Source of the DNA: a virus
IMG/VR virus record: IMGVR_UViG_3300038824_000003
Span: 1 to 54,410 of that record
DNA: 54,410 nucleotides
Direction: 5' to 3' (one strand)
This document shows, in pieces, positions 1 to 18,044 of this stretch. Every line of letters starts with the position of its first letter. Position 1 is the first letter of the stretch. The notes beneath the pieces were generated by a model, which searched no databases, was not told the DNA's origin, and worked only from the letters and a program-made list of their open reading frames with translations. A program made the translations under genes and the position numbers.

Positions 1-99
1 CCCCCCCCCCCGTCACCCAGTTCACCCCTGGGGTGAACCCCAGTTCGCCCCCCCGCATTATCTACGGTATCCACAGGGGGTGTCGCAGCGTTCACCCCC
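1..99. repeat. Terminal direct repeat, left copy
   Basis: Bases 2-99 are identical to 54313-54410; position 1 adds one extra C to a poly-C run (11 C here, 10 C in the right copy). An exact overlap of this length at both contig ends is what an assembler leaves when it linearises a circular or circularly permuted molecule. Supporting this, the leftward gene at 419 stays open through the join into the gene that ends at 53720. A true short terminal repeat is the alternative. Confidence 0.9.
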
Positions 100-419
100 C
101 CCCTGTCACCCAGTTCACCCCCCTGCAAAGCTTCGGCTTCGCTTTTGGCGCGTTCGCGAAGCTCGTCAGTGACCGGGATGATGTAGTAATTCGATGTGCC
201 GGGACGCTCTTCAACGATCAGTTCGCCATCACGCTGCAATGCGCGGATGGTCTTCTGCGCGTTGCGGGGGCTGACCCTGGTTTTATGTGCCAGCGTATCA
301 ATGCCCGGCCACGCCAGACCGTGTTCATTGGCATTGTCTGCGATCGCGAGCAGCATCAGCAGCTTCGTGCCGCGCTGTTTGCTCGTTTCCCATACATGGG
401 TTGTAACTTTGATACTCAC
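1..419 (-). CDS. Replication initiator, N-terminal part (continues across contig ends)
   Basis: GTG start at 419, with AGGAGG six bases upstream. The protein begins with a winged-helix domain (residues ~1-85) typical of phage replisome organisers and plasmid initiators: a TKLLMLLAIADNANEHG-type helix, a TRVSPRNAQKTIRAL recognition-helix region and a GTSNYYII wing. No stop occurs before position 1. Joined to 54410-53720 on the circle it gives one frame of about 336 residues. The linker is encoded by G-rich repeats (GGELGD/GGVN motifs), which are also the candidate origin iterons. The gene overlaps dnaB downstream, so it probably binds the origin and loads the helicase, by analogy with lambda O or DnaD/DnaT-like proteins. 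The domain assignment is by pattern; the initiator role is inferred from context. Confidence 0.75.
   Translation of the reverse strand, partial: MSIKVTTHVWETSKQRGTKLLMLLAIADNANEHGLAWPGIDTLAHKTRVSPRNAQKTIRALQRDGELIVEERPGTSNYYIIPVTDELRERAKSEAEALQGGELGDRGGVNAATPPVDTVDNAGGRTGVHPRGELGDGGG
12..123. other. Candidate replication origin: iteron-like repeats and a DnaA-box-like site
   Basis: Inside the initiator gene, the motif TGTCACCCAGTTCACCCC or close variants occurs at 12-28, 81-99 (degenerate, with GCAGCG in the middle) and 104-123. A further copy lies at 54299-54317, across the join. TTCACCCCTGGGGTGAA at 21-37 is a perfect palindrome with one central base. GTATCCACA at 67-75 matches eight of nine positions of the DnaA box TTATCCACA. 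Lambdoid phages also place their origin iterons inside the initiator gene, between the DNA-binding and helicase-loading domains, which is the arrangement here. The function is inferred; the repeats are seen directly. Confidence 0.6.
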
Positions 420-493
420 AGCAGTCCTCCTGGATCGAGGTAAATTCAAGCGTGGGCATCACCGGTGAGTGCGGGGGTCTGGCAATAAGGTAT

Positions 494-522
494 TTGACAG
501 ACCTCACATCTTAAGCTAGACT
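494..522 (+). promoter_or_regulatory. Sigma70-type promoter for a short rightward RNA
   Basis: TTGACA at 494-499, a 17-base spacer and TAGACT at 517-522. The -35 is consensus and the -10 matches four of six positions. No coding frame follows on this strand; a hairpin and a terminator do, so it most likely drives a short untranslated RNA starting near 529. Confidence 0.5.
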
Positions 523-528
523 CATCGT

Positions 529-608
529 GACGCTGGATACAAACCTGCGGTCAACAGGTTTCCGGTATATGATTGGGTAAATCGCCAGCCCGCTTTTCAG
601 CGGGTTTT
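529..608 (+). ncRNA. Candidate small RNA upstream of, and opposite to, the initiator gene
   Basis: Downstream of the promoter at 494-522 the transcript would be about 80 bases. It holds one hairpin (AAACCTG 541-547 with CAGGTTT 555-561) and ends at a stem CCCGC/GCGGG (589-604) followed by TTTT. The opposite strand is the likely leader of the leftward initiator mRNA, so this RNA would be antisense to that leader. Plasmid replication genes are often controlled by such counter-transcribed RNAs. The structure is visible; expression and function are inferred. The rest of 420-746 shows no gene. Confidence 0.4.
587..608 (+). terminator. Intrinsic terminator
   Basis: Stem CCCGC (589-593), loop TTTTCA, stem GCGGG (600-604), then a short T run (605-608). 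It ends the candidate small RNA. The reverse strand has no T run after the stem, so it should act only rightward. Confidence 0.5.
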
Positions 609-746
609 CCCATTTACTTTACAGCCCCATAACATACCTTTGCTGATGTTACGATTGCATCAGTATGCCGTATGTTGGGGATTTTCGCAAATAGTGGCGC
701 AATACCCTACCGGCGCTGCCCGCAGGTCGATCCTCTACCCCACGTT

Positions 747-1388
747 CTATGCCTCGACAGTTGCTCCCTTCGCTTCTTTATCAACCGCTTTGCTGGCATC
801 CTGATCGCCTTCCGGCAGTGCTGCCTGAGGCGGGATGATGTTTAATTTCTTCAGCGTGGTCTTGCTGATAAGCGGTTTCTGCACGGTCTTGATCTGCACC
901 GGCAGCCAGTTGGCGATGTAGGCTGGCAGTTTCCAGCGTTTGCCATCCTCGGTCTGCTCTTCTTGCGCCATGCGCTTGACGAAATCCTTGAGCGCGTCGG
1001 TGTCCACCTTCAGCAGCCAGGGGGCACGCTGGATTGCTGCGAGTTGCAAAATTCGCTCGTCGTAGTCCAGGTCTTTGTCGTGCCGGAATTTGAGTCCCGG
1101 AACCGGTTCGAGGTCATCCGGGTAGTGGGCAGCGTGCTGCACGATCAGGTCGCGGGCCTGCTGCTCCAGTTGCTCCGCTGCTTGCTGTGCCGCTTTGAGG
1201 GCGGCTTTGGTTTCGGCCCGGCGCTTGACCAGGCCGGGATTTCCTGCGTCGAATTTTTCGAGCAGCGCATCGGTGGCGTCAGTGTATTCGGTATCGGCCT
1301 GCCCTGCTTCCAGGTCAGCAGCGTCAACCGCTTTAAGGGCGGCGGCCAGTTGCTGCTGGATGTTGATGAGTTCGGTTTTGAGAGACAT
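747..1388 (-). CDS. Coiled-coil phage protein of unknown function
   Basis: 213 residues. I chose the ATG at 1388 because GGAGGA lies just upstream; the frame is open further but without a ribosome site. Residues ~1-95 are Ala/Gln/Glu-rich and strongly helical, probably coiled coil. A conserved-looking globular part follows (RAPWLLKVDTDALKDF, then WLPVQIKTVQKPLI), and the last ~30 residues are low complexity. It is the last gene of the leftward run 4524-747, below the Gp3-like protein, so a role in DNA replication or recombination is possible. I do not recognise the family. Confidence 0.75.
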   Translation of the reverse strand: MSLKTELINIQQQLAAALKAVDAADLEAGQADTEYTDATDALLEKFDAGNPGLVKRRAETKAALKAAQQAAEQLEQQARDLIVQHAAHYPDDLEPVPGLKFRHDKDLDYDERILQLAAIQRAPWLLKVDTDALKDFVKRMAQEEQTEDGKRWKLPAYIANWLPVQIKTVQKPLISKTTLKKLNIIPPQAALPEGDQDASKAVDKEAKGATVEA

Positions 1389-1452
1389 ACGTCCTCCGGT
1401 AAATGCTTGACTGTTGGTAAGCTGGCCTCGCCGGGGCGAAGCCAGCGGGTGA

Positions 1453-1821
1453 TTACTTACGGTCTGTAAATTGCCCTGCGGCCCGCTGCCATTGCAGAAA
1501 ACACTGCTCTGCCCAGAATTGGTTTTCTCGGCGATGGAACAAAGCCAGTAATCCGGGGGCGGTTTCCGGGAATGGGTTACGCAGCGGTAGCAATTCCCGG
1601 CAATACATTTGCCGGTCGTTGTCCACTGGCTTTTCGCGAATGACCAGGCGATCCCATTCGTCATCGAACCATTCATCATCTTCGAGATCACGCAATGTGC
1701 ATTCGTGCAGATTGGTCTCAAGGATTTCATGGTCGCGCCAGTGATCGCCTAGCTCGTCCGTCCATCTGCGAACCTGGATAATGTCACCCGGCTTCAACTC
1801 GTAAATGCGTATGATATTCAA
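1453..1821 (-). CDS. Small acidic hypothetical protein
   Basis: 122 residues starting at TTG 1821. AGGAGG sits five bases upstream, and the only nearby ATG leads to an immediate stop, so the TTG start is well supported. The protein is rich in Asp, Glu and Trp (DLEDDEWFDDEWDRL) and begins with a short beta-rich MNIIRIYELKPGDIIQVRR stretch resembling a small barrel. It lies between the coiled-coil protein and the Gp3-like protein. No function recognised. Confidence 0.7.
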   Translation of the reverse strand: MNIIRIYELKPGDIIQVRRWTDELGDHWRDHEILETNLHECTLRDLEDDEWFDDEWDRLVIREKPVDNDRQMYCRELLPLRNPFPETAPGLLALFHRRENQFWAEQCFLQWQRAAGQFTDRK

Positions 1822-1830
1822 GCCATCCTC

Positions 1831-3909
1831 CTAAAACGGGATCAGTTGATAGACGGCGATTAGCTGTTTGCCGGGCACGGTGACGGACGCTTCGCGGTTG
1901 ACCTCTTCGTTGCGGGCCGTGATGCTGACTTCGGTCATCTCCCTGTTCCATTCAGTTTTGGAGATAACCCAGGGGCCAGCGTGCCCCGGCAGTTCGATCA
2001 CCTGACCGGGGGTAAGTGTCAGGGCTTCGACCATGTCGGTCTTTGCACCTTCGACTGTTTCCGGCTCTGGCTCACGTTCTGGGTTCGTTTCGACCTGCTC
2101 AGCTTCGGCATTGTCAGGGGCATCCTCGATGGGCTTCATCACGCTTAGCTGTGTGGCATAGCGTGACTCGCCGGACTTCGGTTTTTGCCACTGCACCAGC
2201 ACGGGGGCGAGCAGCTTACGGGGAAAGGTCGTACCGGCATCCTTCCAGGCATTGACATCCGCCTGCCAGTCTTCGCCCAACGCACGGAACGTATCGCGTC
2301 CGTAAACCAATACCGGTACAGCGGTATTGAGCACAGCCGCCTTGCCATCGTATTCCGTGACCGTGTCGGCCATGAGCGGCCAGTTGTCCAGTTGGGCGCG
2401 TTCGAGGATGGCGGCGTAGGCCATCGATGGGTTGGCAAAATCTGTCCAGGCGTGGCGATTGATCGCGGACATGACTTCGCCCGGCGTCATGTAAAACTGC
2501 GACATGATCCACCGTTCGAGGCGTTCTACCGCGTCTTCATCCCACTTTTCTTCGCGCTTCTGCTGCGGGGCCGGGTTATCTTCGTGCTTCTGCTTGCTGT
2601 TGTTGCTGTTGAATGCGCCCTTGATGGCGGCTCCGGCTGCTGCGCCGGTCGGATAAACCCGGTTCCAGTTATCGCAATCCAGCGCATCGCGGATGTTGGC
2701 GAGGTCAGCCATTTCCTTAAGGGTCAGGCCGTCAACGCCCAATCTCCCACGCATTATTTCCAGCAGTTGATTGAGTGTGTCTTCGGTGGCCCAGGCATGT
2801 TTGGCAGGCTGTGTGGGCTTCTCATCTTCACCGCGCTTGCGGTAGGCGTCGATGACGGCTTGCCTGGCGGCTTCCTGTGATTTGTACTGCCCCCATTCGC
2901 TGGGGCGCTTGACGCCACCCTTGATACCTACCAGGTCGTCCATCTCTTTGGCGGTCATTGAAACACCGAGTTCCATGCAGACCGCTTTGAGCAGGTTGTT
3001 AAGGCTAACCCTATCGACCCATAACTGATGACGATCCGGGTCGAGGTCATCCGTCTTTTGGCCCTTATCCTTGTGTTCGCCGGTGACGTAGTCGGTCATG
3101 GTCTTGATGTCGCCGGGATTTGATTCCGGCGGTGTATCGACCTCTGCTGGTAGCTGATGCAATGAGGCTTGCTGTAAGCGCTGTGCCGGGGCCGGTTTCG
3201 CACCTGCCAGTATTGGCAGCAGATGATGCTGGGTGAATTCGCTCGTCACCCGGATATAGAGCATGTGTTTGGTGACGGTGCGGCGTCCCCCGCTTTTGGC
3301 ATCCGGCACGCTCATGTCCTGCGGGCTGCGCCCGACCACGAACGGAACGCCGGTCAGTCCACCGACCATCTTCTCAATGTCGGCCAGATAGCGACTGATT
3401 TCAGCGATGTCTTTGATTGAGTGGGTACTGATCTGGATATAACCCAAGATGCCGACCTGCTCGATAAAGTCTGGCAGGAAGATGTTGAGACGACCGGTGG
3501 GCTTGCACGCGCAGGGCGGTTCACTGCCCTGCGCGCAAGCGATAGGATCATCGCTGTATGCGCCGGTGGGTTGATCGAAGTGGCGGACCTGCGTTTCACC
3601 ATCGCAGCGATGGAGCAGCGCGGTTTTCGTCCACTCTTCGTACCAGTTGGGGAAGGCGTTATCTGCGGTGGCATGAGCAAGATAGATGTTCTCGAATTCG
3701 CGAGGTTCTTCGCCATAGAGCGACATCCACGCGGCCCGCAGTTCAGCTTCCTGCTGTGCGAATTGTGGGTCGAATTCGACACGAAAGTAATCGAGATCAC
3801 GACCGGGCCGCTTGCCATCCTCCGGGCGTTCATCCCCTTTGAACAGCTTGGCGATTCGGGGCAGACCTTCGCCGAAACGGGAGCTATCTGTTAAGCCTTT
3901 AATTGGCAT
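1831..3909 (-). CDS. Gp3-like recombination directionality factor / metal-binding protein
   Basis: 692 residues. The N-terminal ~260 residues follow the actinophage Gp3-like family, often annotated 'recombination directionality factor' or 'hydrolase or metal-binding protein'. It opens MPIKGLTD, continues with GRDLDYFRVEF and a WYEEWT...LLHRCDGE segment, then spaced cysteines (CAQGSEPPCACKPTGRL) that could bind zinc. The C-terminal ~430 residues are poorly conserved and charged, with repeated helical segments around 280-470 and an acidic linker near 610. In phages with serine integrases the family controls excision. No integrase is present here, so the role may instead be in replication or recombination. 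The family call is by motif and gene position. Confidence 0.6.
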   Translation of the reverse strand: MPIKGLTDSSRFGEGLPRIAKLFKGDERPEDGKRPGRDLDYFRVEFDPQFAQQEAELRAAWMSLYGEEPREFENIYLAHATADNAFPNWYEEWTKTALLHRCDGETQVRHFDQPTGAYSDDPIACAQGSEPPCACKPTGRLNIFLPDFIEQVGILGYIQISTHSIKDIAEISRYLADIEKMVGGLTGVPFVVGRSPQDMSVPDAKSGGRRTVTKHMLYIRVTSEFTQHHLLPILAGAKPAPAQRLQQASLHQLPAEVDTPPESNPGDIKTMTDYVTGEHKDKGQKTDDLDPDRHQLWVDRVSLNNLLKAVCMELGVSMTAKEMDDLVGIKGGVKRPSEWGQYKSQEAARQAVIDAYRKRGEDEKPTQPAKHAWATEDTLNQLLEIMRGRLGVDGLTLKEMADLANIRDALDCDNWNRVYPTGAAAGAAIKGAFNSNNSKQKHEDNPAPQQKREEKWDEDAVERLERWIMSQFYMTPGEVMSAINRHAWTDFANPSMAYAAILERAQLDNWPLMADTVTEYDGKAAVLNTAVPVLVYGRDTFRALGEDWQADVNAWKDAGTTFPRKLLAPVLVQWQKPKSGESRYATQLSVMKPIEDAPDNAEAEQVETNPEREPEPETVEGAKTDMVEALTLTPGQVIELPGHAGPWVISKTEWNREMTEVSITARNEEVNREASVTVPGKQLIAVYQLIPF

Positions 3910-3968
3910 TGTAACCTCCCGTAACTCAACGTAATGTGATTCTTACTTTGGTTTTGCATTGGTTGTGC

Positions 3969-4031
3969 TATACTCCATGTAGGGGATCGCACGCTGAGCA
4001 GATCCAAAACTCCCGCGTGCGATTCCCTTCT
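3969..4031 (+). other. Long hairpin behind a possible promoter, upstream of the Gp3-like gene
   Basis: A -10-like TATACT (3969-3974) precedes a strong inverted repeat, GGGATCGCACGC (3983-3994) and GCGTGCGATTCCC (4015-4027), followed by TTCTTTTG. Read rightward it resembles a very short terminated RNA. Read leftward it is a 12-bp stem in the leader of the gene starting at 3909, where it could act as an operator or attenuator. The layout resembles the candidate small RNA at 529-608. Confidence 0.35.
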
Positions 4032-4098
4032 TTTGTGTTGCCCCCTGCCACACGACACTGATTGGAAGTCGAGGTCGTATGTGCGTGGGGGTTTCCTT

Positions 4099-4524
4099 TT
4101 AGTAGCGGCACGCTTCCGGCAGCCAGCGCATCCAGGGGCCGGACGGCAGCCCCACGTAAAACCCACTGGGTGGGCCGGGAGGCTGCGGCGGCTTGACTGC
4201 GCCGGTCTGCGTTTCTGCGATTTGCTCCGGCGGCTTGCTGGTGTCGAGCGAGACCCCAACCCGGATTTGCAGTAACCAGGGGCCTTCTGGCCGGTGGTCG
4301 GCACGGAGTGTTTTAACAGACGTGCGGTTTACGCGAACGCCCATCTGCTCGACCCTGGCGAACAGCGCGTCCTCTGTAGCGAAGCCATGCAGTTCTATCG
4401 GGTCATCTACCGTGCCCGCAATGAGTTCGGGCTGCCCCTTGACTGTCTGGAGCACGAGCGGCGCGATGCCACAGGTTTCCAGTTGTGTTGCGATAGCGTT
4501 CATGTGTTGAGCGCATCCCTCCAT
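4099..4524 (-). CDS. Hypothetical protein with proline-rich tail
   Basis: Up to 141 residues, the first gene of the leftward early block. Start choice is uncertain: ATG 4524 lies a few bases after a -10-like TAAAAT and would be almost leaderless, while ATG 4503 lies 14 bases after GGAGG. The N-terminal ~95 residues look like a compact alpha/beta domain; the tail is rich in Pro and Gly (PPQPPGPPSGF). The dyad GTAGGTCA/TGACCTAC lies immediately upstream, so it may be regulated. No family recognised. Confidence 0.6.
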   Translation of the reverse strand: MEGCAQHMNAIATQLETCGIAPLVLQTVKGQPELIAGTVDDPIELHGFATEDALFARVEQMGVRVNRTSVKTLRADHRPEGPWLLQIRVGVSLDTSKPPEQIAETQTGAVKPPQPPGPPSGFYVGLPSGPWMRWLPEACRY

Positions 4525-4547
4525 AAAGCTTATTTTACCACAAGCCT

Positions 4548-4576
4548 GTAGGTCAGGTGTCCTATGAGTGACCTAC
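4548..4576. promoter_or_regulatory. Operator-like inverted repeat
   Basis: A perfect 8-bp dyad, GTAGGTCA (4548-4555) and TGACCTAC (4569-4576), separated by 13 bases. It sits 24 bases upstream of the first gene of the leftward early operon and next to a TAAAAT -10-like sequence. A repressor or activator site is likely. Confidence 0.45.
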
Positions 4577-5060
4577 GCCGATAGCACATTACGTTTGGTG
4601 ATTGTAACATGCCCCGTTTCTATTGTGCGTCAGGGTTTGGTTAGAACTTACGTTCGGTTGCTATATGCGAATCTAGCATGCCTTCAACCCTGCTGCCGTA
4701 GCCCATTACGTCCCGGTTGGGGACTGGCCCCGCCCCACCCTGCCGGAGGTCTATTTGACTGCGATGCTGTTTGGGAGTTCTGGCGTCGATGATGACCCCG
4801 CACCTCTGGGGCGTTTAGGGTCTCCCAGCCGACCGTATGTTATGCTCGTGTAAACAATATTAAGTATGATGTTAAGGGATGTCAATTTGTTGATGGTTAT
4901 AATTATAAGAATTTATTGTGAAAGCTAACCGTATATTACGAAAGGTTATTGGGCATTGGGATGCGGTTATAGTTCCGCACGAATGTCTTTATGCAGTCCC
5001 AATGCAATTGCAATTACGGTTTATAATGGGGTACGCAATTGCATTCAGCAATCGCCCTAC
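4577..5060. promoter_or_regulatory. Divergent control region, AT-rich, with TGCAATT-type sites
   Basis: There is no gene here. 4840-4930 is clearly more AT-rich than the rest of the window. TGCAATTGCA at 5003-5012 (a perfect palindrome extended by ATT) and GCAATTGC at 5035-5042 flank a consensus -10 TATAAT at 5022-5027, whose -35 is poor, suggesting control by a bound protein. Related TGCAATT dyads recur at 12923-12938 and 17316-17331. This region separates the leftward early block from the rightward block, the usual place for the main phage switch. Confidence 0.45.
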
Positions 5061-5144
5061 CCCACAATCGAGCGTATCCAGTTGTTAAGGTGCGCCGCCT
5101 CAAGTGTAACTTCCCTGAAGGCATGATAGAATTGCATACAGTAG

Positions 5145-5216
5145 CATTTCTGATGCAGTTCATATACTCAATATATCAGAAATGTTGAATATGTCAAGTA
5201 TGTTTGGTATGCTTGA
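5145..5216 (+). promoter_or_regulatory. Promoter and operators of the ribbon-helix-helix gene
   Basis: TTGAAT (5185-5190), a 17-base spacer and TATGCT (5208-5213) form a good promoter just ahead of the gene at 5232. A perfect 10-bp inverted repeat, CATTTCTGAT (5145-5154) and ATCAGAAATG (5175-5184), lies directly upstream. A second imperfect dyad, TCAAGTATG (5194-5202) and TATGCTTGA (5208-5216), covers the -10. The gene product is itself a likely DNA-binding protein, so autoregulation is plausible. Confidence 0.5.
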
Positions 5217-6363: not shown

Positions 6364-7253
6364 ACGAGTTGGGCGCGAAGGTACGCGACGCCGTCCGGCA
6401 GGGGGATAATCATTTGCGGCAGGCGCTGCTTTACCGGCTGAAAGTGGGGCGCTATTTGATCGAAGCGAAGGGACTGTGCCTGCATGGTGAGTGGGGTGCA
6501 TGGATGGATCGCTGGTGGGCGAAATCAGAGCGTACTGCCCAGATGTACATGCGGTTCGTAGGCCTCGTTGATGAAGCCGGGATTTCCGCAACGGTTGCGG
6601 ATTTACCGCTGCTGGATGAGCAGTGGAAACTGGCATCACGCTCCGGGCCGGAGCTGGCAATGCCGGATACCGCAGCGGGCAATGGGGAAGGCGACACTTC
6701 CGCCGTGCGCGAGTCGTCATCCCCCACCCTCACCCCAGGGCCTGTAACAACTGCACCGCCTGATAAAACAGCCATCACCCGGCAGCAGGTTTACGATTAC
6801 CGGTTTTCGATGGTATCGCAGATGATGGACACCGGGGTATTGACGCCGGATCAGGCGCTGGTATTGGGCGACACGTTAAGCGCGTGTGCGCCGAAGGTGC
6901 GCGGCGATATGCTGCTGTCCCAGATTGTGGACAGTGGCGTGATCCGCGAGATGAACCGGTTATGGAAGGCCGGGCGTGAGAGCTATGACGAACTGGTCGC
7001 CAGCCGGTACGTGCAGATGGACAATGACGCAATCCCGCTGGAACGGGCGACGCTTCGCAATCTGCGCGATTACCTGGACGAGAAGCGCGACGAGCACCGC
7101 CGGGCAGCCATTGAGCAGAAGCGGGGGCGGGTAACGTGCAGCGTGGGTGGTGATGTCATGCGCCGGGCGCTGCGAGCGCATAGCGACGTGTGGCGCGATA
7201 TTCCGACTGATGGCCGGGTGATTGTCACGGTCGAGTGGGAGGTGGGGTCGTGA
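6321..7253 (+). CDS. DUF3102-like phage protein
   Basis: 310 residues from GTG 6321, with GGAGGG upstream. The N-terminal ~90 residues carry the phage motif LKVGRYLIEAKGLCLHGEWG...RTAQMYMRF, typical of DUF3102-type proteins that often sit beside partition or regulatory genes. A Ser/Thr/Pro-rich linker (~115-150) follows, then a second helical domain (~155-290). One copy of the 19-bp near-palindromic repeat (6586-6604) lies in the coding sequence. The GTG of the next, disrupted gene overlaps its TGA stop. Confidence 0.6.
   Translation: MSTSITIIDPHAQLDELGAKVRDAVRQGDNHLRQALLYRLKVGRYLIEAKGLCLHGEWGAWMDRWWAKSERTAQMYMRFVGLVDEAGISATVADLPLLDEQWKLASRSGPELAMPDTAAGNGEGDTSAVRESSSPTLTPGPVTTAPPDKTAITRQQVYDYRFSMVSQMMDTGVLTPDQALVLGDTLSACAPKVRGDMLLSQIVDSGVIREMNRLWKAGRESYDELVASRYVQMDNDAIPLERATLRNLRDYLDEKRDEHRRAAIEQKRGRVTCSVGGDVMRRALRAHSDVWRDIPTDGRVIVTVEWEVGS
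6586..6604 (+). repeat. 19-bp near-palindromic repeat, copy 1
   Basis: CCGCAACGGTTGCGGATTT, exact in three places on the plus strand (6586-6604, 14723-14741, 43956-43974) plus a one-mismatch relative at 27607. Flanked here by T and A, the core is an 8+1+8 palindrome. Copies lie both inside genes and between genes. Confidence 0.7.
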
Positions 7254-7320
7254 GCGCGTTGGAAACTATGCACGACCTGAAAGCGATCATCGAAGCGCAG
7301 GGCCAGCACAAGGTCAACGA

Positions 7321-7570
7321 CCACCCGATAAATCGGGTGGCTTGCAATAAGCGATCCCATGTTGACCAGCCTCAGCCCTACGGGGCTACGTTACAGGCGA
7401 ATGGATAGGCACTCCGGGGTGACGCTCCAGCCCCGGACACTGCGGTGAGTGGTTAAACAGCTTGAGGGTCTAAGGCAGTGCTGCTCACAAGAAACCGCTT
7501 GATAACATTGGCGAGGAGAACTTTATCTGCATAAGCGGAAGTAATGGGGGAAACCCCATCGTGTTTCTGA
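7321..7570 (+). ncRNA. Candidate IscB omega RNA (HEARO-type)
   Basis: The region between the left hairpin and iscB is rich in stems: CCACCCGA/TCGGGTGG (7321-7340), AGCCC/GGGCT near 7375, TCCGGGG...CCCCGGA near 7415-7437, and ATGGGG/CCCCAT just before iscB. In IscB systems the RNA lies directly upstream of the gene and its 5' guide comes from the sequence flanking the left end, here the codons before 7321. The position and structure fit. The boundaries are approximate and the guide is inferred. Confidence 0.65.
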
Positions 7571-7581
7571 AAGGGGACAGA

Positions 7582-8877
7582 ATGCAACGTGTAATGGTAC
7601 TGGACAAGAACAAACAACCACTGATGCCCTGCCATCCCGCACGGGGCAAAGAGTTGTTGGACAAAGGGAAAGCGGCTGTGTTCCGTCAAAATCCCTTCAC
7701 TATCATCCTGAAGTATGTTGTTGAGACAAACAACCAGGACATTCAGATCAAGTTCGATCCCGGCAGCAAAACCACCGGGATTGCACTGGTGGCGAGTTTC
7801 AAGACCGGCAAGCGCGTGATCTGGTCGGCTGATGTGCATCATCGCGGGCAGCAGATCACGAACGGCCTGCTATCGCGGCGGCAGTTGCGCCGAGGGCGAC
7901 GATCTCGTAAGACGCGCTACCGAAAGCCGCGCTTTGACAACCGCCGTCGCGCTGAGGGCTGGCTGCCGCCGTCACTGGAAAGTCGCGTAGACAACTTGTT
8001 AACCTGGGCCGGGCGATTGTGGCGGTTTGCGCCCGTTACTTCCGCCGCAATGGAACTGGTGAAGTTTGATACGCAGGCCATGCAGAACCCCGAAATCAGC
8101 GGGGTAGAGTACCAGCAGGGCGAGTTGATGGGTTATGAAGTGCGTGAATACCTGCTGGAAAAGTGGGGTCGCAAATGCGCTTACTGCGGCGTAACTGATG
8201 TTCCGCTGCAAATCGAGCACATCGTCCCGAAGTCACGCGGCGGCAGTAATCGCGTCTCCAACCTGACAATTTCCTGCCAGGACTGCAACCAATGCAAAGG
8301 CAACCAGACCGCTGCTGAGTTCGGCCATCCGGCGATTCAGGGCAAAGCCAAACGCCCGTTGAAAGATGCAGCGGCAGTCAACGCGACCCGCTGGGCGTTG
8401 TACCGGCGTTTCGAGCAATCCGGTTTGCCGCTGGAAATCGGCAGCGGCGGGCGCACGAAATATAACCGTCGCAAACAGGGCTATCCGAAAGCGCATTGGA
8501 TTGACGCTGCTTGCGTGGGAGAAAGCGGCGAACAGGTCTACATCGCGCCGAATCATGTCCCGCTGGTCATCAGGGCCACCGGGCGACAGTCGCGGCTGAT
8601 GTGCCGCCCGGACAAATATGGTTTTCCGCGCACGAGTGCCAAGAAGGGCCGCGTGCAGTTCGGCTTTCAGACCGGGGACATGGTTCGTGCGGTAGTGACA
8701 AAAGACAAAAAGCAGGGGATCTACACCGGGCGGGTGGCGGTCAGAAGCTCCGGCAGTTTCAACATCACCACCCGCGCAGGCACGGTGCAGGGCATCAGCT
8801 ATCGCTACTGCACCCATTTACACAAATCCGATGGATATAGCTACGAGAAAGGAGAAGCGGCTTCCTCCACCCGATAA
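7582..8877 (+). CDS. iscB: IscB RNA-guided endonuclease
   Basis: 431 residues from ATG 7582, with AGGGGA upstream. Domains in order: PLMP domain with the literal PLMP at residues 13-16; RuvC-I with IKFDPGSKTTG (Asp59); an Arg-rich bridge helix (~98-124); RuvC-II with AAMELVKFD (Glu158); an HNH domain with CAYC, EHIVPKSRGG (His213) and CQDCNQCKGN; RuvC-III with HWIDAA (Asp308); then a C-terminal barrel-like TAM-recognition region. All expected catalytic residues are present, so it is probably active. The stop codon lies in the loop of the right-end hairpin. IscB is the ancestor-type relative of Cas9 and uses an omega RNA to cut matching DNA. Confidence 0.93.
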   Translation: MQRVMVLDKNKQPLMPCHPARGKELLDKGKAAVFRQNPFTIILKYVVETNNQDIQIKFDPGSKTTGIALVASFKTGKRVIWSADVHHRGQQITNGLLSRRQLRRGRRSRKTRYRKPRFDNRRRAEGWLPPSLESRVDNLLTWAGRLWRFAPVTSAAMELVKFDTQAMQNPEISGVEYQQGELMGYEVREYLLEKWGRKCAYCGVTDVPLQIEHIVPKSRGGSNRVSNLTISCQDCNQCKGNQTAAEFGHPAIQGKAKRPLKDAAAVNATRWALYRRFEQSGLPLEIGSGGRTKYNRRKQGYPKAHWIDAACVGESGEQVYIAPNHVPLVIRATGRQSRLMCRPDKYGFPRTSAKKGRVQFGFQTGDMVRAVVTKDKKQGIYTGRVAVRSSGSFNITTRAGTVQGISYRYCTHLHKSDGYSYEKGEAASSTR

Positions 8878-9020
8878 ATCGGGTGGTTTCCGCCGCGCAA
8901 TTCTGATGATAAACGTCACCGGCGAACCATTGGATGATCCGGTGTACGAGTTCCAGACCGTCGATGATATTCTGCGGCTGGTGGGGTTGGTGGCTATTTA
9001 TGCCCGGATGGAAAACGACG

Positions 9021-9170
9021 GTGAGTAAGCGCGGTATCCGCCGGGCATTGTGGGAGATGCAGCACCTGCCGGAGGATCAGCCAGCATCGCTGCGTAGCCG
9101 GTTGCTGTGGTGGATCGGGGTGCTGCTTGTGGTGTTGGTTGTCATCCTGCGCGTGCGTGGGGTGTTGTGA
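9021..9170 (+). CDS. Small single-pass membrane protein
   Basis: About 49 residues from GTG 9021, overlapping the stop of the split gene. A basic N-terminus (SKRGIRRALWEMQHL) is followed by one strong hydrophobic span (LLWWIGVLLVVLVVIL) near the C-terminus. Function unknown; small phage membrane peptides often act in lysis control or exclusion. Confidence 0.5.
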   Translation: MSKRGIRRALWEMQHLPEDQPASLRSRLLWWIGVLLVVLVVILRVRGVL

Positions 9171-9250: not shown

Positions 9251-9268
9251 GAGATGAAAGGAATAACC

Positions 9269-10069
9269 ATGAAGATTATCACTGTGACAAATCGCAAGGG
9301 CGGTGTCGGTAAAACGACAATGGCCGTGCATATCGCTGCCGGGCTGGCAAATCGGGGGCTGAACGTGGGCCTGATCGATACTGACTCGCAGGGGCACGCC
9401 GCGCTCTTCCTGGACATGGAAGAAGAGAACGGGCTGTTCCAGACCCTGATCGAAAAGCAGCCGTTGGAAGAAGTGGTGCGGATCGTGCCGCCGGGACACT
9501 ACACGCTCAACCCGGATGAGGCGACCGGCAATCTGTTCTTGCTGCCATCGAGCGAGAAGACGTACAAAATCCCGTATGAACTGGATGCTGAAGATGCGTT
9601 CGCGTTCCTGGAAATGGCTGAGGATTTCGCCGCGAAAGCCAACCTGGACGTGATCGTGATTGACACTAATCCCACGCTGAGCATGTTCGATGGGGCGGTG
9701 TACATGGCGACGGATGGCTTCATTTACGTGACGGAGTGCGAGGCACTGTCGTTCGATGGTATTGCGAAGGCTACCGAGCAAGTTGCCAATCTCAGCCGCC
9801 AGCGCAGACGCTACCTGCAACGTGAGACGCGCATCCTGGGGGTGATCCCCAACAAGCTGAAGGCCAACACCGTGCTGCACCGCAAGAACATTGCGGAACT
9901 GGCGCAGACCTATACGGACATTGTCTGGTCGCCGATCACGCACCGCATTGCATGGGCCGAGTCTGCCCAGGCTCACCGCACCGTTTATGTCTATGCGCCT
10001 GATGAACAGGAAGCAACCGATGCCAACATGCTGGCCGATAATACGTTAAAGGCAATCCAGTCATGGTAA
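9269..10069 (+). CDS. parA: ParA-family partition ATPase
   Basis: 266 residues from ATG 9269, with AAGGAA upstream. The deviant Walker A KGGVGKTT is at residues ~10-17, the switch I-type DTDSQGHA follows at ~38-45, and the Walker B-like VIVIDTNPTL is at ~129-138. There is no N-terminal HTH, so it is a short, type Ib-like ParA. Such proteins bind DNA non-specifically when ATP-bound and position plasmids or chromosomes through a ParB partner. The stop overlaps the start of the next gene (ATGGTAA), the normal parAB arrangement. In phages this is typical of plasmid-like prophages. Confidence 0.9.
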   Translation: MKIITVTNRKGGVGKTTMAVHIAAGLANRGLNVGLIDTDSQGHAALFLDMEEENGLFQTLIEKQPLEEVVRIVPPGHYTLNPDEATGNLFLLPSSEKTYKIPYELDAEDAFAFLEMAEDFAAKANLDVIVIDTNPTLSMFDGAVYMATDGFIYVTECEALSFDGIAKATEQVANLSRQRRRYLQRETRILGVIPNKLKANTVLHRKNIAELAQTYTDIVWSPITHRIAWAESAQAHRTVYVYAPDEQEATDANMLADNTLKAIQSW

Positions 10070-10830
10070 GTAAGCACGACAAGCTGGATGGTAAATCTGC
10101 TTTTGGGGCTACTGGTGGCAAGAAACGGCCATCGCTGGCGGAGATGATGGGATCGCTCACTGGTGAGTCGGACGATGAGCCGGAAGTCATCCGCGAAACG
10201 GTCACGGAATATGTTGAGGTTGTCCCGGATGATGCCCTGGTTCCGCGTGCGGATGGCGCTATCCTGGCAAAAGGATTCGTGCTCCAGCGTGGCATCGGGT
10301 TGCAAATGGATGAGAGTGCCACGCCTGATGATTGGTTCCGACTTGGTGAGCAGTTGTTCTCCATTGAAGGCAATCTGCAATTGTTCATTGGGGACTGGCT
10401 GAATATCGGCGAATGGCATTACAACCAGACCTATCGCGATATGGCTGAAAAGTTTGATCGGGAAATCAAGACGCTGCGAAATTGGAAATATGTGTGCGCC
10501 AGCGTGGACTTGTCCTTACGTAAGGACAACCTCGATTTTGGGCATTACAATCTGGTGGCCGGAATGGATGCCCACAATCAGCAGCGGTGGCTGGATGCAG
10601 CCAGCGAGGGGGATGGCAGTCGCCGGTGGTCGGTGCGCGAACTGCGTGCGCGTATCAAAGCGGATCAGCAGCCCCCTACCCTACCGGCAGATCATGATCC
10701 CGTTGTGCAATTTCAGACAGAAATCGAGAAGTTGCAGCAGAAAATCAAGAAGTGGGAGCAACTCGAAGCCGGTCAGCGTCAACAATTTGCAGAACTACTG
10801 CGTAATTGGGCTAACGAACTCGACCAGTAG
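10063..10830 (+). CDS. ParB-like partition partner
   Basis: 255 residues, overlapping parA by seven bases. An acidic N-terminal region (~35-65) precedes a helical DNA-binding-like domain (~85-190) with the pattern WLNIGEWHYNQTYRDMAEKF, TLRNWKYVCASVDLS and HYNLVAGMDAHNQQRWLDAA, then VRELRARIKA and a C-terminal coiled coil (~210-255). The order resembles DNA-binding ParB/KorB-type centre proteins, but the classic ParB nuclease-like N-terminal motif is absent. Position strongly suggests it is the centromere-binding adaptor of the ParA above. Confidence 0.65.
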   Translation: MVSKHDKLDGKSAFGATGGKKRPSLAEMMGSLTGESDDEPEVIRETVTEYVEVVPDDALVPRADGAILAKGFVLQRGIGLQMDESATPDDWFRLGEQLFSIEGNLQLFIGDWLNIGEWHYNQTYRDMAEKFDREIKTLRNWKYVCASVDLSLRKDNLDFGHYNLVAGMDAHNQQRWLDAASEGDGSRRWSVRELRARIKADQQPPTLPADHDPVVQFQTEIEKLQQKIKKWEQLEAGQRQQFAELLRNWANELDQ

Positions 10831-10855
10831 GGTAGGGCGCGAAGAGCGTGAAGTG

Positions 10856-10906
10856 ATGGCGCAGAAATTGGAAAGCCTGGCAAAGCAGTTGCGCTCTTTG
10901 GGATAA
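10856..10906 (+). CDS. Possible 16-residue peptide
   Basis: ATG 10856 to TAA 10906 encodes MAQKLESLAKQLRSLG, an amphipathic helix, between the ParB-like gene and the HerA-like gene. There is no strong ribosome site, so it may be chance. Confidence 0.15.
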   Translation: MAQKLESLAKQLRSLG

Positions 10907-10924
10907 ATTTGGGAAATAGGAAAG

Positions 10925-12442
10925 ATGAACATTGACACTACCGGCAAACTGCATATGGGTATCACCGACCTGCTGGGCGAGTCGGTGGCGGTGCTGGGCA
11001 TCAAGGGCAGCGGCAAGTCGAACACGACCGCTGCGCTCTGTGAAGAGATGCTCAGTGCCGGGCTGCCGATGGTGATCGTGGACATCGCAGGGGAATACTG
11101 GGGCCTGAAGGAACGCTATCAAATCCTGGTCGCGGGTAAGTCCTCAAATGTTGACCTGGAGGTTGACGTGGATGGCGCGGCGGCGCTGGCAGCGTATTCG
11201 CTGCAAAACAAAGTACCGACGATCCTCGACCTTTCCGGCTGGCGGCGTTCAGAGCGGATGCCGGTTGTGAGCGCGTATCTCGAAACACTGTGGGATTTGG
11301 CCGGTGACCTGCGGCGTCCCTATCACATCATCCTGGAAGAAGCTCATAACTTCATCCCACAGAGCGGCAATACCGATGTCAGTGAAATCCTGGTGATGAT
11401 CGCGACTGAGGGCCGTAAGCGTGGCCTGGGCATCGTAATGGTGGGCCAGCGATCTGCCCGGATTGACAAAGATGTGCTCAGTCAGGCTGGTATCCTGATG
11501 CTGCACCGCGTGCGCCATCCGGCGGATGTGGGCGTCTACCAGGACATCCTACCCGCAGAGCGCAAATGGGTTAAAGCGGAGACGGCCAAACTGTCAACCG
11601 GCGAGGCGCTGGTGCTTTTTGGCGATGACGTTATCCGGGCAGCAATCCGCAAGCGGCATACGTATCACGCGGGGTATACGCCGGGGCTGGATGAGACCGA
11701 AGCGCCGGCGTTGCGGCGGGTCGATGACGCGATGCTATCGGAACTACGCGACGCCCTGAAAAGCCGGGCGCAATCCGGTGAAACGGGGATTACGGCGGCG
11801 GAAAAGCGGATCGAGGCACTGGAAGGCATCATCGAAGAAAAGGATGCCGAAATCGCAGGATTGCAAAAAGACCTCGATAGCGCACTGGCCCAGGTGCGGA
11901 TGTTGTCGCGGTTGAAAGTGATCGACGAGCGCCCGCGATCAGAGGCGGTGCAGATGGCGCTGCCGAGCATGGCAGTCCAGCAGGCCGATGTTGCCCAGGT
12001 CAGGTTGAATGGGATGGTGGCAGCGCCGGTGGCAGAAGCCGTCGCGGAAGTAGAGTTGGAAACTGACACACAGCCTACAACGGCAGAACCCTATCGCAGC
12101 GAGTTGGCGGTCACACGGGCGTACAATGCCCAGGAACGGCAGTTCAACCGCTTCCTGCTGAAGTTGCAGACACTGCCCGCGCATCATTTGAAGATGCTGC
12201 AATATCTGACACACAGCGGGGCGTGGATGACGGAGCCGGAATTAATCGCGAAACTGGGTTACAGCGCATCGACGGTGGAGCGCAACCGTCCCGGTTGGCT
12301 GCGGCAGGAAGGCGTGCTTGTCATGCGCGGCAAGCGTGGGCATACAAAGGAATGGCGCTCGCGGCTGGCAGCGTACCTGGTGCAGATCGCGCCGGATCAT
12401 GAAGTGCGTGGGTTGATCGATCAGGTTATGAAGTTGAGGTAA
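10925..12442 (+). CDS. HerA/FtsK-like ATPase
   Basis: 505 residues. Walker A GIKGSGKSN (~25-33), Walker B PYHIILEEAHNF (~136-147) and EGRKRGLGIVMVGQR with downstream Arg match the HerA/DUF87 branch of FtsK-type hexameric DNA pumps. Residues ~285-330 form a coiled coil. The C-terminal ~100 residues look like a helix-turn-helix module (LQYLTHSGAWMTEPELIAKLG...). A spacer of about 95 bases separates it from the ParB-like gene, so it may share the operon. A separate terminase exists, so packaging is not its obvious job; DNA translocation in partition, entry or repair are candidates. HerA often works with the nuclease NurA, which is not seen here. Confidence 0.75.
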   Translation: MNIDTTGKLHMGITDLLGESVAVLGIKGSGKSNTTAALCEEMLSAGLPMVIVDIAGEYWGLKERYQILVAGKSSNVDLEVDVDGAAALAAYSLQNKVPTILDLSGWRRSERMPVVSAYLETLWDLAGDLRRPYHIILEEAHNFIPQSGNTDVSEILVMIATEGRKRGLGIVMVGQRSARIDKDVLSQAGILMLHRVRHPADVGVYQDILPAERKWVKAETAKLSTGEALVLFGDDVIRAAIRKRHTYHAGYTPGLDETEAPALRRVDDAMLSELRDALKSRAQSGETGITAAEKRIEALEGIIEEKDAEIAGLQKDLDSALAQVRMLSRLKVIDERPRSEAVQMALPSMAVQQADVAQVRLNGMVAAPVAEAVAEVELETDTQPTTAEPYRSELAVTRAYNAQERQFNRFLLKLQTLPAHHLKMLQYLTHSGAWMTEPELIAKLGYSASTVERNRPGWLRQEGVLVMRGKRGHTKEWRSRLAAYLVQIAPDHEVRGLIDQVMKLR

Positions 12443-17299: not shown

Positions 17300-17428
17300 A
17301 TGCTGGCATTTCCAATGCAATTCAAATTGCAATTGTACTTCTGTTCTGGTATATTATGTACTGACTTAAGTGCTAACGTAATTAGATGTGTAGGTATAGA
17401 TGGAATGGCGATGCCAGCGACAATTTGA
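17300..17428 (+). CDS. Possible 42-residue leader peptide
   Basis: ATG 17300 is preceded by AGGAGG at ideal spacing and encodes a short hydrophobic, Cys-containing peptide (MLAFPMQFKLQLYFCSG...). It overlaps the promoter at 17327-17355 and the first codons of the next gene. It could be a leader peptide or chance. Confidence 0.25.
   Translation: MLAFPMQFKLQLYFCSGILCTDLSANVIRCVGIDGMAMPATI
17316..17355 (+). promoter_or_regulatory. Late-region promoter with TGCAATT operator
   Basis: TTGCAA (17327-17332), 17 bases, TATATT (17350-17355): a good promoter 45 bases ahead of the first late-block gene. The perfect dyad TGCAATT-CA-AATTGCA (17316-17331) overlaps its -35, so a protein bound there would probably repress it. 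The half-site is shared with 5003-5015 and 12923-12938. Confidence 0.55.
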
Positions 17429-18044
17429 TTATGCAGCGTTCCGGGCCGCGTACACGGCGAAAAAGCGCCGGTCGGAATATGCGGCCCTGGAGGCTTTGCC
17501 AGCATGGGTCATGGCTAACAAGCGCGTCATGCGCGTCATGCGCCGGACGCGCCGGTTGATTGATGCCCGCTCGCTGACCGGGAGGTTGGGCACTGCCCGG
17601 CCTGATTATTCGCCGGTACAGGCAAAGCGTGCGAAATGGTGGAAGCGACCATCGCTGTGGGCCGATGACGCGCCAGCGCGGGCGGCCCACGATGGGCAGC
17701 GGTCGTTGACACGCCCGACCGAGGATGAAGCGTTGGAGAACGTATACGTGCGGGCTAAGGGCAGCATGCCGGTTAGCGAGATTAAGGTCATCACGGCAAA
17801 GAAGATTAAACAGCGTGCGCCGCGTGGCTGGCAGTATTGTGTTACGTGTCACCAGTACAAAGCCCCGGATGCGTTTGGTAGCGATCCGCGCAATACCAAT
17901 CGCGACGGTTTGCAATCGTACTGCCTGGCGTGTGAAGCGCAACGGAAGAAGGAAGCGCGGGCACGCAAGAAGAAACGACAGCAGCGCAAACAGAACGCGG
18001 CCCAAAGGGCGAGTGCCTACAGTCGGGTGACTGCCGGTGATTGA
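17400..18044 (+). CDS. Zinc-finger protein, HNH/recombinase-VII-like treble clef
   Basis: 214 residues. The N-terminal ~110 residues are Arg/Ala-rich and basic. At ~145-185 a zinc module CVTCHQYKAPDAFG...YCLACEAQRKK has two CxxC pairs in the form used by many phage HNH-type or recombination-endonuclease-VII-like proteins, but no clear HNH catalytic His is visible. The tail is very Lys/Arg-rich. It lies directly before the terminase genes, where HNH proteins that assist packaging are common, so a packaging role is plausible. Confidence 0.55.
   Translation: MEWRCQRQFDYAAFRAAYTAKKRRSEYAALEALPAWVMANKRVMRVMRRTRRLIDARSLTGRLGTARPDYSPVQAKRAKWWKRPSLWADDAPARAAHDGQRSLTRPTEDEALENVYVRAKGSMPVSEIKVITAKKIKQRAPRGWQYCVTCHQYKAPDAFGSDPRNTNRDGLQSYCLACEAQRKKEARARKKKRQQRKQNAAQRASAYSRVTAGD

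What the first reader, a model, noticed from the sequence alone, without database searches (positions are those of the whole stretch)
7321..8886. IscB/omega-RNA island inside a phage genome, interrupting a gene
Complete iscB with all RuvC and HNH residues, a structured upstream RNA and identical 20-bp end hairpins lie in the early operon of a tailed phage. IscB elements in phage genomes are rare in what I know. The guide, read from the left flank, would target the uninterrupted allele, so the element could act as a homing or competitor-killing device between related phages. The nuclease may also mature into a phage defence or counter-defence tool.
Basis: partly seen in the sequence, partly recalled or inferred. 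Interest (0 to 1): 0.78.

Follow-up and report, generated by a model that had tools for sequence, protein, structure and literature searches.

The report
Cas9-ancestor (IscB) element in a phage
A tailed bacteriophage carries a complete small mobile element that encodes IscB, the RNA-guided DNA cutter from which Cas9 evolved; it is an intact member of a known kind, and such elements turn out to be fairly common in phages rather than rare.

Summary
Rfam's HEARO (omega-RNA) model matches 7313-7526 (+) at 145.2 bits against a gathering score of 83. It is followed by a complete 431-aa IscB (7582-8877) with all RuvC and HNH catalytic residues. The contig is a tailed phage. Relatives, including one contig with three 87-88% identical copies, show that such elements start at the omega-RNA's 5' stem (GTCAAC, 7313) and end about 19 nt past the right hairpin (8905), directly before an ATGA/GTGA-type motif; here ATGA at 8906. 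Among 51 related elements, 43 have [AG]TG[AG] at that place (20% expected). The predicted guide is AAGCGCAGGGCCAGCACAAG (7293-7312). Its target is the guide followed by ATGA, i.e. the empty site; the filled site has GTCA and should be spared. Joining the flanks restores an in-frame 61-codon ORF. No transposase lies in the contig; no empty-site relative was found. IscB in phages is not rare: at least 141 IMG/VR stretches encode relatives, and isolated Nodularia phages differ by presence or absence of one. Homing between phages is plausible but untested. Verdict: a new member of a known kind.

The parts
7250..7312 (+). 5' part of the interrupted ORF (GTG start overlapping the TGA of the upstream DUF3102 gene); encodes VSALETMHDLKAIIEAQGQHK
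   Evidence: joined in frame with 8906-9028; highest coding score of the three + frames
7293..7312 (+). predicted guide of the omega-RNA (16-20 nt): AAGCGCAGGGCCAGCACAAG
   Evidence: lies directly 5' of HEARO model position 1; guide length 16-20 nt from PMC9640706 and PMC9581776; its 18-nt core is unique in the window even with 3 mismatches
7313..7526 (+). HEARO / omega-RNA scaffold; position 7313 is the left end of the element
   Evidence: Rfam RF02033 145.2 bits; left edge fixed by related multi-copy elements with unrelated flanks
7321..7340 (+). left-end hairpin CCACCCGATAAATCGGGTGG
   Evidence: part of the HEARO structure
7545..7558 (+). hairpin 3' of the HEARO match, just before the iscB Shine-Dalgarno sequence (AAAGGGG, 7570-7576)
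   Evidence: compare the SD-bearing terminal hairpin of IsrB omega-RNA (PMC9581776)
7582..8877 (+). iscB: RNA-guided nuclease, 431 aa, with RuvC-I, RRXRR, RuvC-II, HNH, RuvC-III and C-terminal region
8867..8886 (+). right-end hairpin, identical to the left one; overlaps the iscB stop codon
8887..8905 (+). right-end tail TTTCCGCCGCGCAATTCTG; 8905 is the right end of the element
   Evidence: matches tails of relatives, e.g. L077 TTTCTCGCGCAAGACTG|ATGA in three copies
8906..8909 (+). predicted target-adjacent motif (TAM) ATGA in the right flank
   Evidence: 43 of 51 related elements have [AG]TG[AG] at this place, 20% expected; NTGA TAM measured for DtIsrB (PMC9581776)
8906..9028 (+). 3' part of the interrupted ORF, MINVTGEPLDDPVYEFQTVDDILRLVGLVAIYARMENDGE
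   Evidence: coding score +21 in this frame, negative in the other two + frames

Best explanation
This is an intact, stand-alone IscB/HEARO (OMEGA) insertion element of 1593 bp (7313-8905), inserted on the coding strand directly 5' of an ATGA in a tailed phage's DUF3102-orf-parA-parB-herA gene cluster, splitting a small ORF. Shown: anatomy, ends and motif (by comparison with relatives), intact active sites and long-term purifying selection. Inferred: (1) phage transcription from the left makes an RNA whose 5' end is the left flank (guide) fused to the HEARO scaffold; (2) IscB binds it and cuts DNA that carries the guide sequence followed by ATGA, i.e. the empty allele, while the filled allele has GTCA there and is spared; (3) repair of the cut from an element-bearing copy restores or spreads the element, either after excision or in a co-infecting related phage; (4) actual jumping to new sites uses a Y1 (TnpA-type) transposase supplied in trans that recognises the two identical end hairpins.
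For: HEARO match over the whole model. IscB domains and catalytic residues. Ends fixed by three 87-88% identical copies in L077, all GTCAAC...CTG|ATGA with unrelated flanks, and by L024/L025/L033 for the left end. [AG]TG[AG] at the right junction in 43 of 51 elements against 20% by chance, p about 5e-23. Empty site rejoins in frame. IscB dN 0.20 and dS about 2.2 (near saturation) between the window and L049, so the nuclease is kept by selection. Phage IscB elements are mobile: Nodularia phage kac68v162 carries a 1.5-kb IscB insertion that siblings about 98-100% identical in the flanks lack. For the analogous nuclease TnpB, RNA-guided cutting of empty sites works as retention and gene drive (PMC11870625).
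Against: No empty-site relative of this phage was found, so the guide-target match is inferred from the window itself. No transposase in the contig, so mobility in trans is a guess. RNA production and nuclease activity are not shown. The interrupted ORF has no database relatives, so that it is a real gene rests on frame, coding score and start-stop overlap.
Confidence: 0.75

Rival explanations
1. A phage homing or competitor-exclusion device: the element's main mode of spread is cutting the empty allele of co-infecting related phages and being copied in, with transposition no longer important.
For: No Y1 transposase in the window or in 26 of 31 phage records with IscB. An otherwise unlike phage (L049) carries the nearest IscB (75%) at the same place upstream of a parA-parB-herA cluster. 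The predicted TAM distinguishes empty from filled sites.
Against: The L049 site is not the same sequence and its immediate neighbours are unlike; IscB and ParA are equally saturated at synonymous sites (pS 0.71 and 0.73), so no recent exchange is seen. Lack of TnpA is also usual for bacterial HEARO/IscB (PMC9755519). No empty-site phage was found.
Confidence: 0.3
2. A dying or decayed insertion carried along by chance, with IscB no longer active.
For: No transposase; sits in a contig with no close relatives.
Against: All catalytic residues, the full omega-RNA, identical end hairpins and dN far below dS.
Confidence: 0.08
3. IscB has been domesticated by the phage as a defence or counter-defence tool with guides against rivals or the host.
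For: Phage IscBs form several clades in the tree; the gene is under selection.
Against: The element keeps both ends and its guide is simply the insertion flank; no second guide or array was seen, and the only other match to the 13-nt seed with 2 or fewer mismatches in the window is not followed by NTGA.
Confidence: 0.04

Closest known systems
HEARO / IscB (OMEGA) elements, Rfam RF02033 with RRXRR-HNH protein
   Same: Full-length RNA model match, domain order, catalytic residues, RNA upstream of the gene, terminal hairpins, NTGA-type motif at the right junction, no adjacent TnpA as in most of them
   Different: Carried by a tailed phage; 67-75% identical to its nearest relatives
IscB insertion in Nodularia phage vB_NspS-kac68v162 (MK605246), absent from kac68v161 and kac65v151
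   Same: Isolated tailed phage with an IscB element that sibling phages lack
   Different: About 51% identical protein, inserted in a tnpB gene next to an IS607-type transposase; its omega-RNA is below Rfam's threshold and its junctions do not show a simple ATGA edge
DtIsrB of Desulfovirgula thermocuniculi
   Same: Omega-RNA with a Shine-Dalgarno-bearing terminal hairpin; NTGA TAM (PMC9581776)
   Different: IsrB lacks the HNH domain and only nicks; here HNH is complete
OgeuIscB (PDB 7xht, 8csz)
   Same: Same domains and active-site residues
   Different: Distant (97.6 bits); different TAM
HEARO RNAs noted in Staphylococcus Silviavirus phages (PMC13346280)
   Same: HEARO-type RNA and an IscB-like HNH gene in lytic phages
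   Different: Protein only about 25% identical over 72% of the length

Membership tests
IscB / HEARO (OMEGA) element | HEARO/omega-RNA covariance match directly upstream of the nuclease gene | tested here: met
   RF02033, 145.2 bits, model 1-211 of 211
IscB / HEARO (OMEGA) element | RuvC with bridge helix (RRXRR) and an inserted HNH domain, with catalytic residues | tested here: met
   PF14239 and PF01844; D59, E158, H213, H305, D308 aligned to OgeuIscB
IscB / HEARO (OMEGA) element | Defined ends with left-flank guide and TAM in the right flank | tested here: met
   ends and ATGA by comparison with relatives
IscB / HEARO (OMEGA) element | RNA-guided DNA cleavage | not testable with these tools
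   needs biochemistry
Autonomous IS200/IS605-type transposon | Y1 (TnpA) transposase gene in the element | tested here: not met
   no PF01797 match in the window at E up to 10
IS200/IS605-type ends (mobilisable in trans) | Subterminal hairpin at both ends, no target-site duplication | tested here: inconclusive
   identical hairpins 7321-7340 and 8867-8886 and no repeat of the flank at the two edges, but no empty site of this phage is known to prove absence of a duplication
Homing endonuclease system of phages | Cleaves an element-free allele in a related phage and is copied into it | tested here: inconclusive
   target logic fits; no empty-site relative found

The most novel reading that the evidence does not exclude
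IscB elements in phages act as RNA-programmed homing drives: each insertion rewrites the guide, so the element can home into the matching site of any co-infecting relative, and the shared position upstream of parA-parB-herA in two otherwise unlike phages reflects repeated invasion of one phage module.
Probability: 0.25. Interest if true: 0.7.

Novelty: new member of a known kind. Interest (0 to 1): 0.36.

Why it matters
It gives a clean phage-borne IscB with well-supported ends, guide and predicted target, so the question whether Cas9's ancestor works as a homing or retention nuclease in viruses becomes directly testable. It also corrects the idea that phage IscB is rare.

Tried and rejected
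(1) Hypothesis that these elements land specifically at start codons and bring their own ribosome-binding site: many examples looked persuasive by eye, but among right-junction [AG]TG[AG] sites the share opening an ORF of 40 or more codons (25 of 43) did not differ significantly from control sites (47%, p 0.09), nor did Shine-Dalgarno strength (9 of 43 against 21%); rejected. (2) Hypothesis of recent IscB transfer between the window phage and L049: 75% protein identity against 32-49% for the neighbours looked like it, but synonymous divergence is near saturation for both IscB and ParA, so the higher identity may only be constraint. (3) Empty-site search by the guide plus NTG, and by the peptide across the junction: 3 and 10 chance matches, none an empty site. 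(4) Relatives by the DUF3102 and ParB-like genes: none. (5) TerL and MCP of the window were not found in the L049 phage, so it is not a close relative. (6) A first strict hairpin finder missed most right ends because of a bulge and was replaced.

Full report
The RNA folds at -100.7 kcal/mol, z -3.4. The following ORF, ATG 7582 to stop 8877, is a complete 431-aa IscB: RRXRR 243 bits and HNH in Pfam, and alignment to OgeuIscB places D59, E158, H213, H305 and D308 on the RuvC and HNH residues named for OgeuIscB in PMC9640706; all five are invariant among 18 relatives. A Shine-Dalgarno sequence AAAGGGG precedes the ATG behind a small hairpin, much as reported for IsrB (PMC9581776).

The host replicon is a tailed phage: terminase, portal, head protease, major head protein, tape measure, DnaB-type helicase and methyltransferases by PHROGs. 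It is an IMG/VR record of 54410 bases, and the region has almost no DNA relatives among 50,697 phage records. The element lies in a + strand cluster: DUF3102 gene, interrupted small ORF, ParA, ParB-like, HerA-like ATPase.

The ends need correcting. The HEARO model starts with GTCAAC at 7313, which pairs with GUUGAC about 48 nt downstream, so the 8 nt before the left hairpin are scaffold, not flank. In L077 three copies of a related element, 87-88% identical, all begin GTCAAC and all end ...GCGCAAGACTG followed by ATGA, with unrelated flanks outside. The window's right end reads ...CCGCGCAATTCTG|ATGA in the same register. Three cyanobacterial copies with different flanks fix the left edge independently. 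A test on 51 non-redundant right ends found [AG]TG[AG] 13-25 nt after the right hairpin in 43, against 19.6% at random positions of the same loci, p about 5e-23. This agrees with the NTGA target-adjacent motif measured for DtIsrB (PMC9581776). The element is therefore 7313-8905, and its right flank starts with the TAM ATGA.

Joining 7312 to 8906 gives one frame: GTG 7250, which overlaps the TGA of the DUF3102 gene, through 21 codons, into ATG 8906 and 39 further codons; codon-usage scores favour this frame among the + frames on both sides. So the claim that an ORF is interrupted holds, with the caveat that the product has no database relatives. The core of the predicted guide AAGCGCAGGGCCAGCACAAG is unique in the window. 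In the joined allele it is followed by ATGA, in the filled allele by GTCA, so empty and filled sites should be told apart. This is an inference: no empty-site relative was found in viral contigs.

Rarity. Tblastn in phage records finds full-length relatives in, among others, a Nodularia phage, a Microcoleus phage and an uncultured 484-kb phage, and a two-pattern scan of IMG/VR finds 141 stretches encoding relatives, a lower bound. In a tree of 104 IscBs virus-borne ones are interleaved with bacterial ones, with at least 9 changes forced by well-supported branches; the window groups with L049 and L050 (support 98) next to Anaerolineae sequences (support 96). Nodularia phages show presence and absence of a 1.5-kb IscB insertion between siblings whose flanks are about 98-100% identical, so phage IscB insertions can be recent, although that insertion's junctions are not a simple ATGA edge. 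HEARO was also noted in Staphylococcus phages (PMC13346280).

Mechanism. No Y1 transposase lies in the window and 26 of 31 phage records with IscB have none, as is usual for HEARO loci (PMC9755519). The identical end hairpins fit recognition by a transposase acting in trans; that step is inferred. Cutting the empty site followed by copying from the filled one is described for the analogous nuclease TnpB as retention and as a plasmid gene drive (PMC11870625); that it happens between co-infecting phages here is plausible, not shown. The nuclease has been kept by selection: dN 0.20 with dS near saturation between the window and L049.

A curious point: L049, in whose contig the window's terminase and major head protein were not recognisable, carries the nearest IscB (75%) at the same place upstream of a ParA-ParB-HerA cluster (32-49% identical). 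The landing sites and the upstream genes are unlike in sequence. Vertical keeping, parallel insertion and invasion of one module cannot be separated with two cases.

Verdict: an ordinary but intact and well-delimited IscB/HEARO element in a phage; a new member of a known kind.

Noticed in passing
L049 (IMGVR_UViG_3300020201_000050), 1-5214: An otherwise unlike phage carries the nearest IscB upstream of the same gene order ParA, ParB-like, HerA-like as the window; an element hot spot or a shared module.
   Followed up: partly
L046 against L129 and L131 (Nodularia phages): A 1.5-kb IscB insertion inside a tnpB gene next to an IS607-type transposase, present in kac68v162 and absent in near-identical siblings: a ready test system for phage IscB mobility.
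   Followed up: partly
L024, L025, L033 right ends: Cyanobacterial IscB elements end at GCGATCG(C), the abundant HIP1-like palindrome of such genomes (from memory); their TAM may have adapted to it.
   Followed up: no
L077 (IMGVR_UViG_2914811602_000004): Three diverged IscB copies within about 7 kb of one contig, each before a different ATGA.
   Followed up: partly
L005 (IMGVR_UViG_3300035701_007086): Two HEARO-IscB elements about 5.6 kb apart in one viral contig.
   Followed up: no
L002 4720-4760: The left flank of this phage IscB element looks by eye like the 5' part of a tRNA gene, in a contig with several tRNAs and a tmRNA; possible insertion in a tRNA gene.
   Followed up: no
window 9254-12442: ParA, ParB-like and HerA-like genes in a phage suggest a plasmid-like or partitioned prophage state.
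   Followed up: no
window 17400-18044: Weak match to endonuclease VII / HNH families just upstream of the terminase.
   Followed up: no
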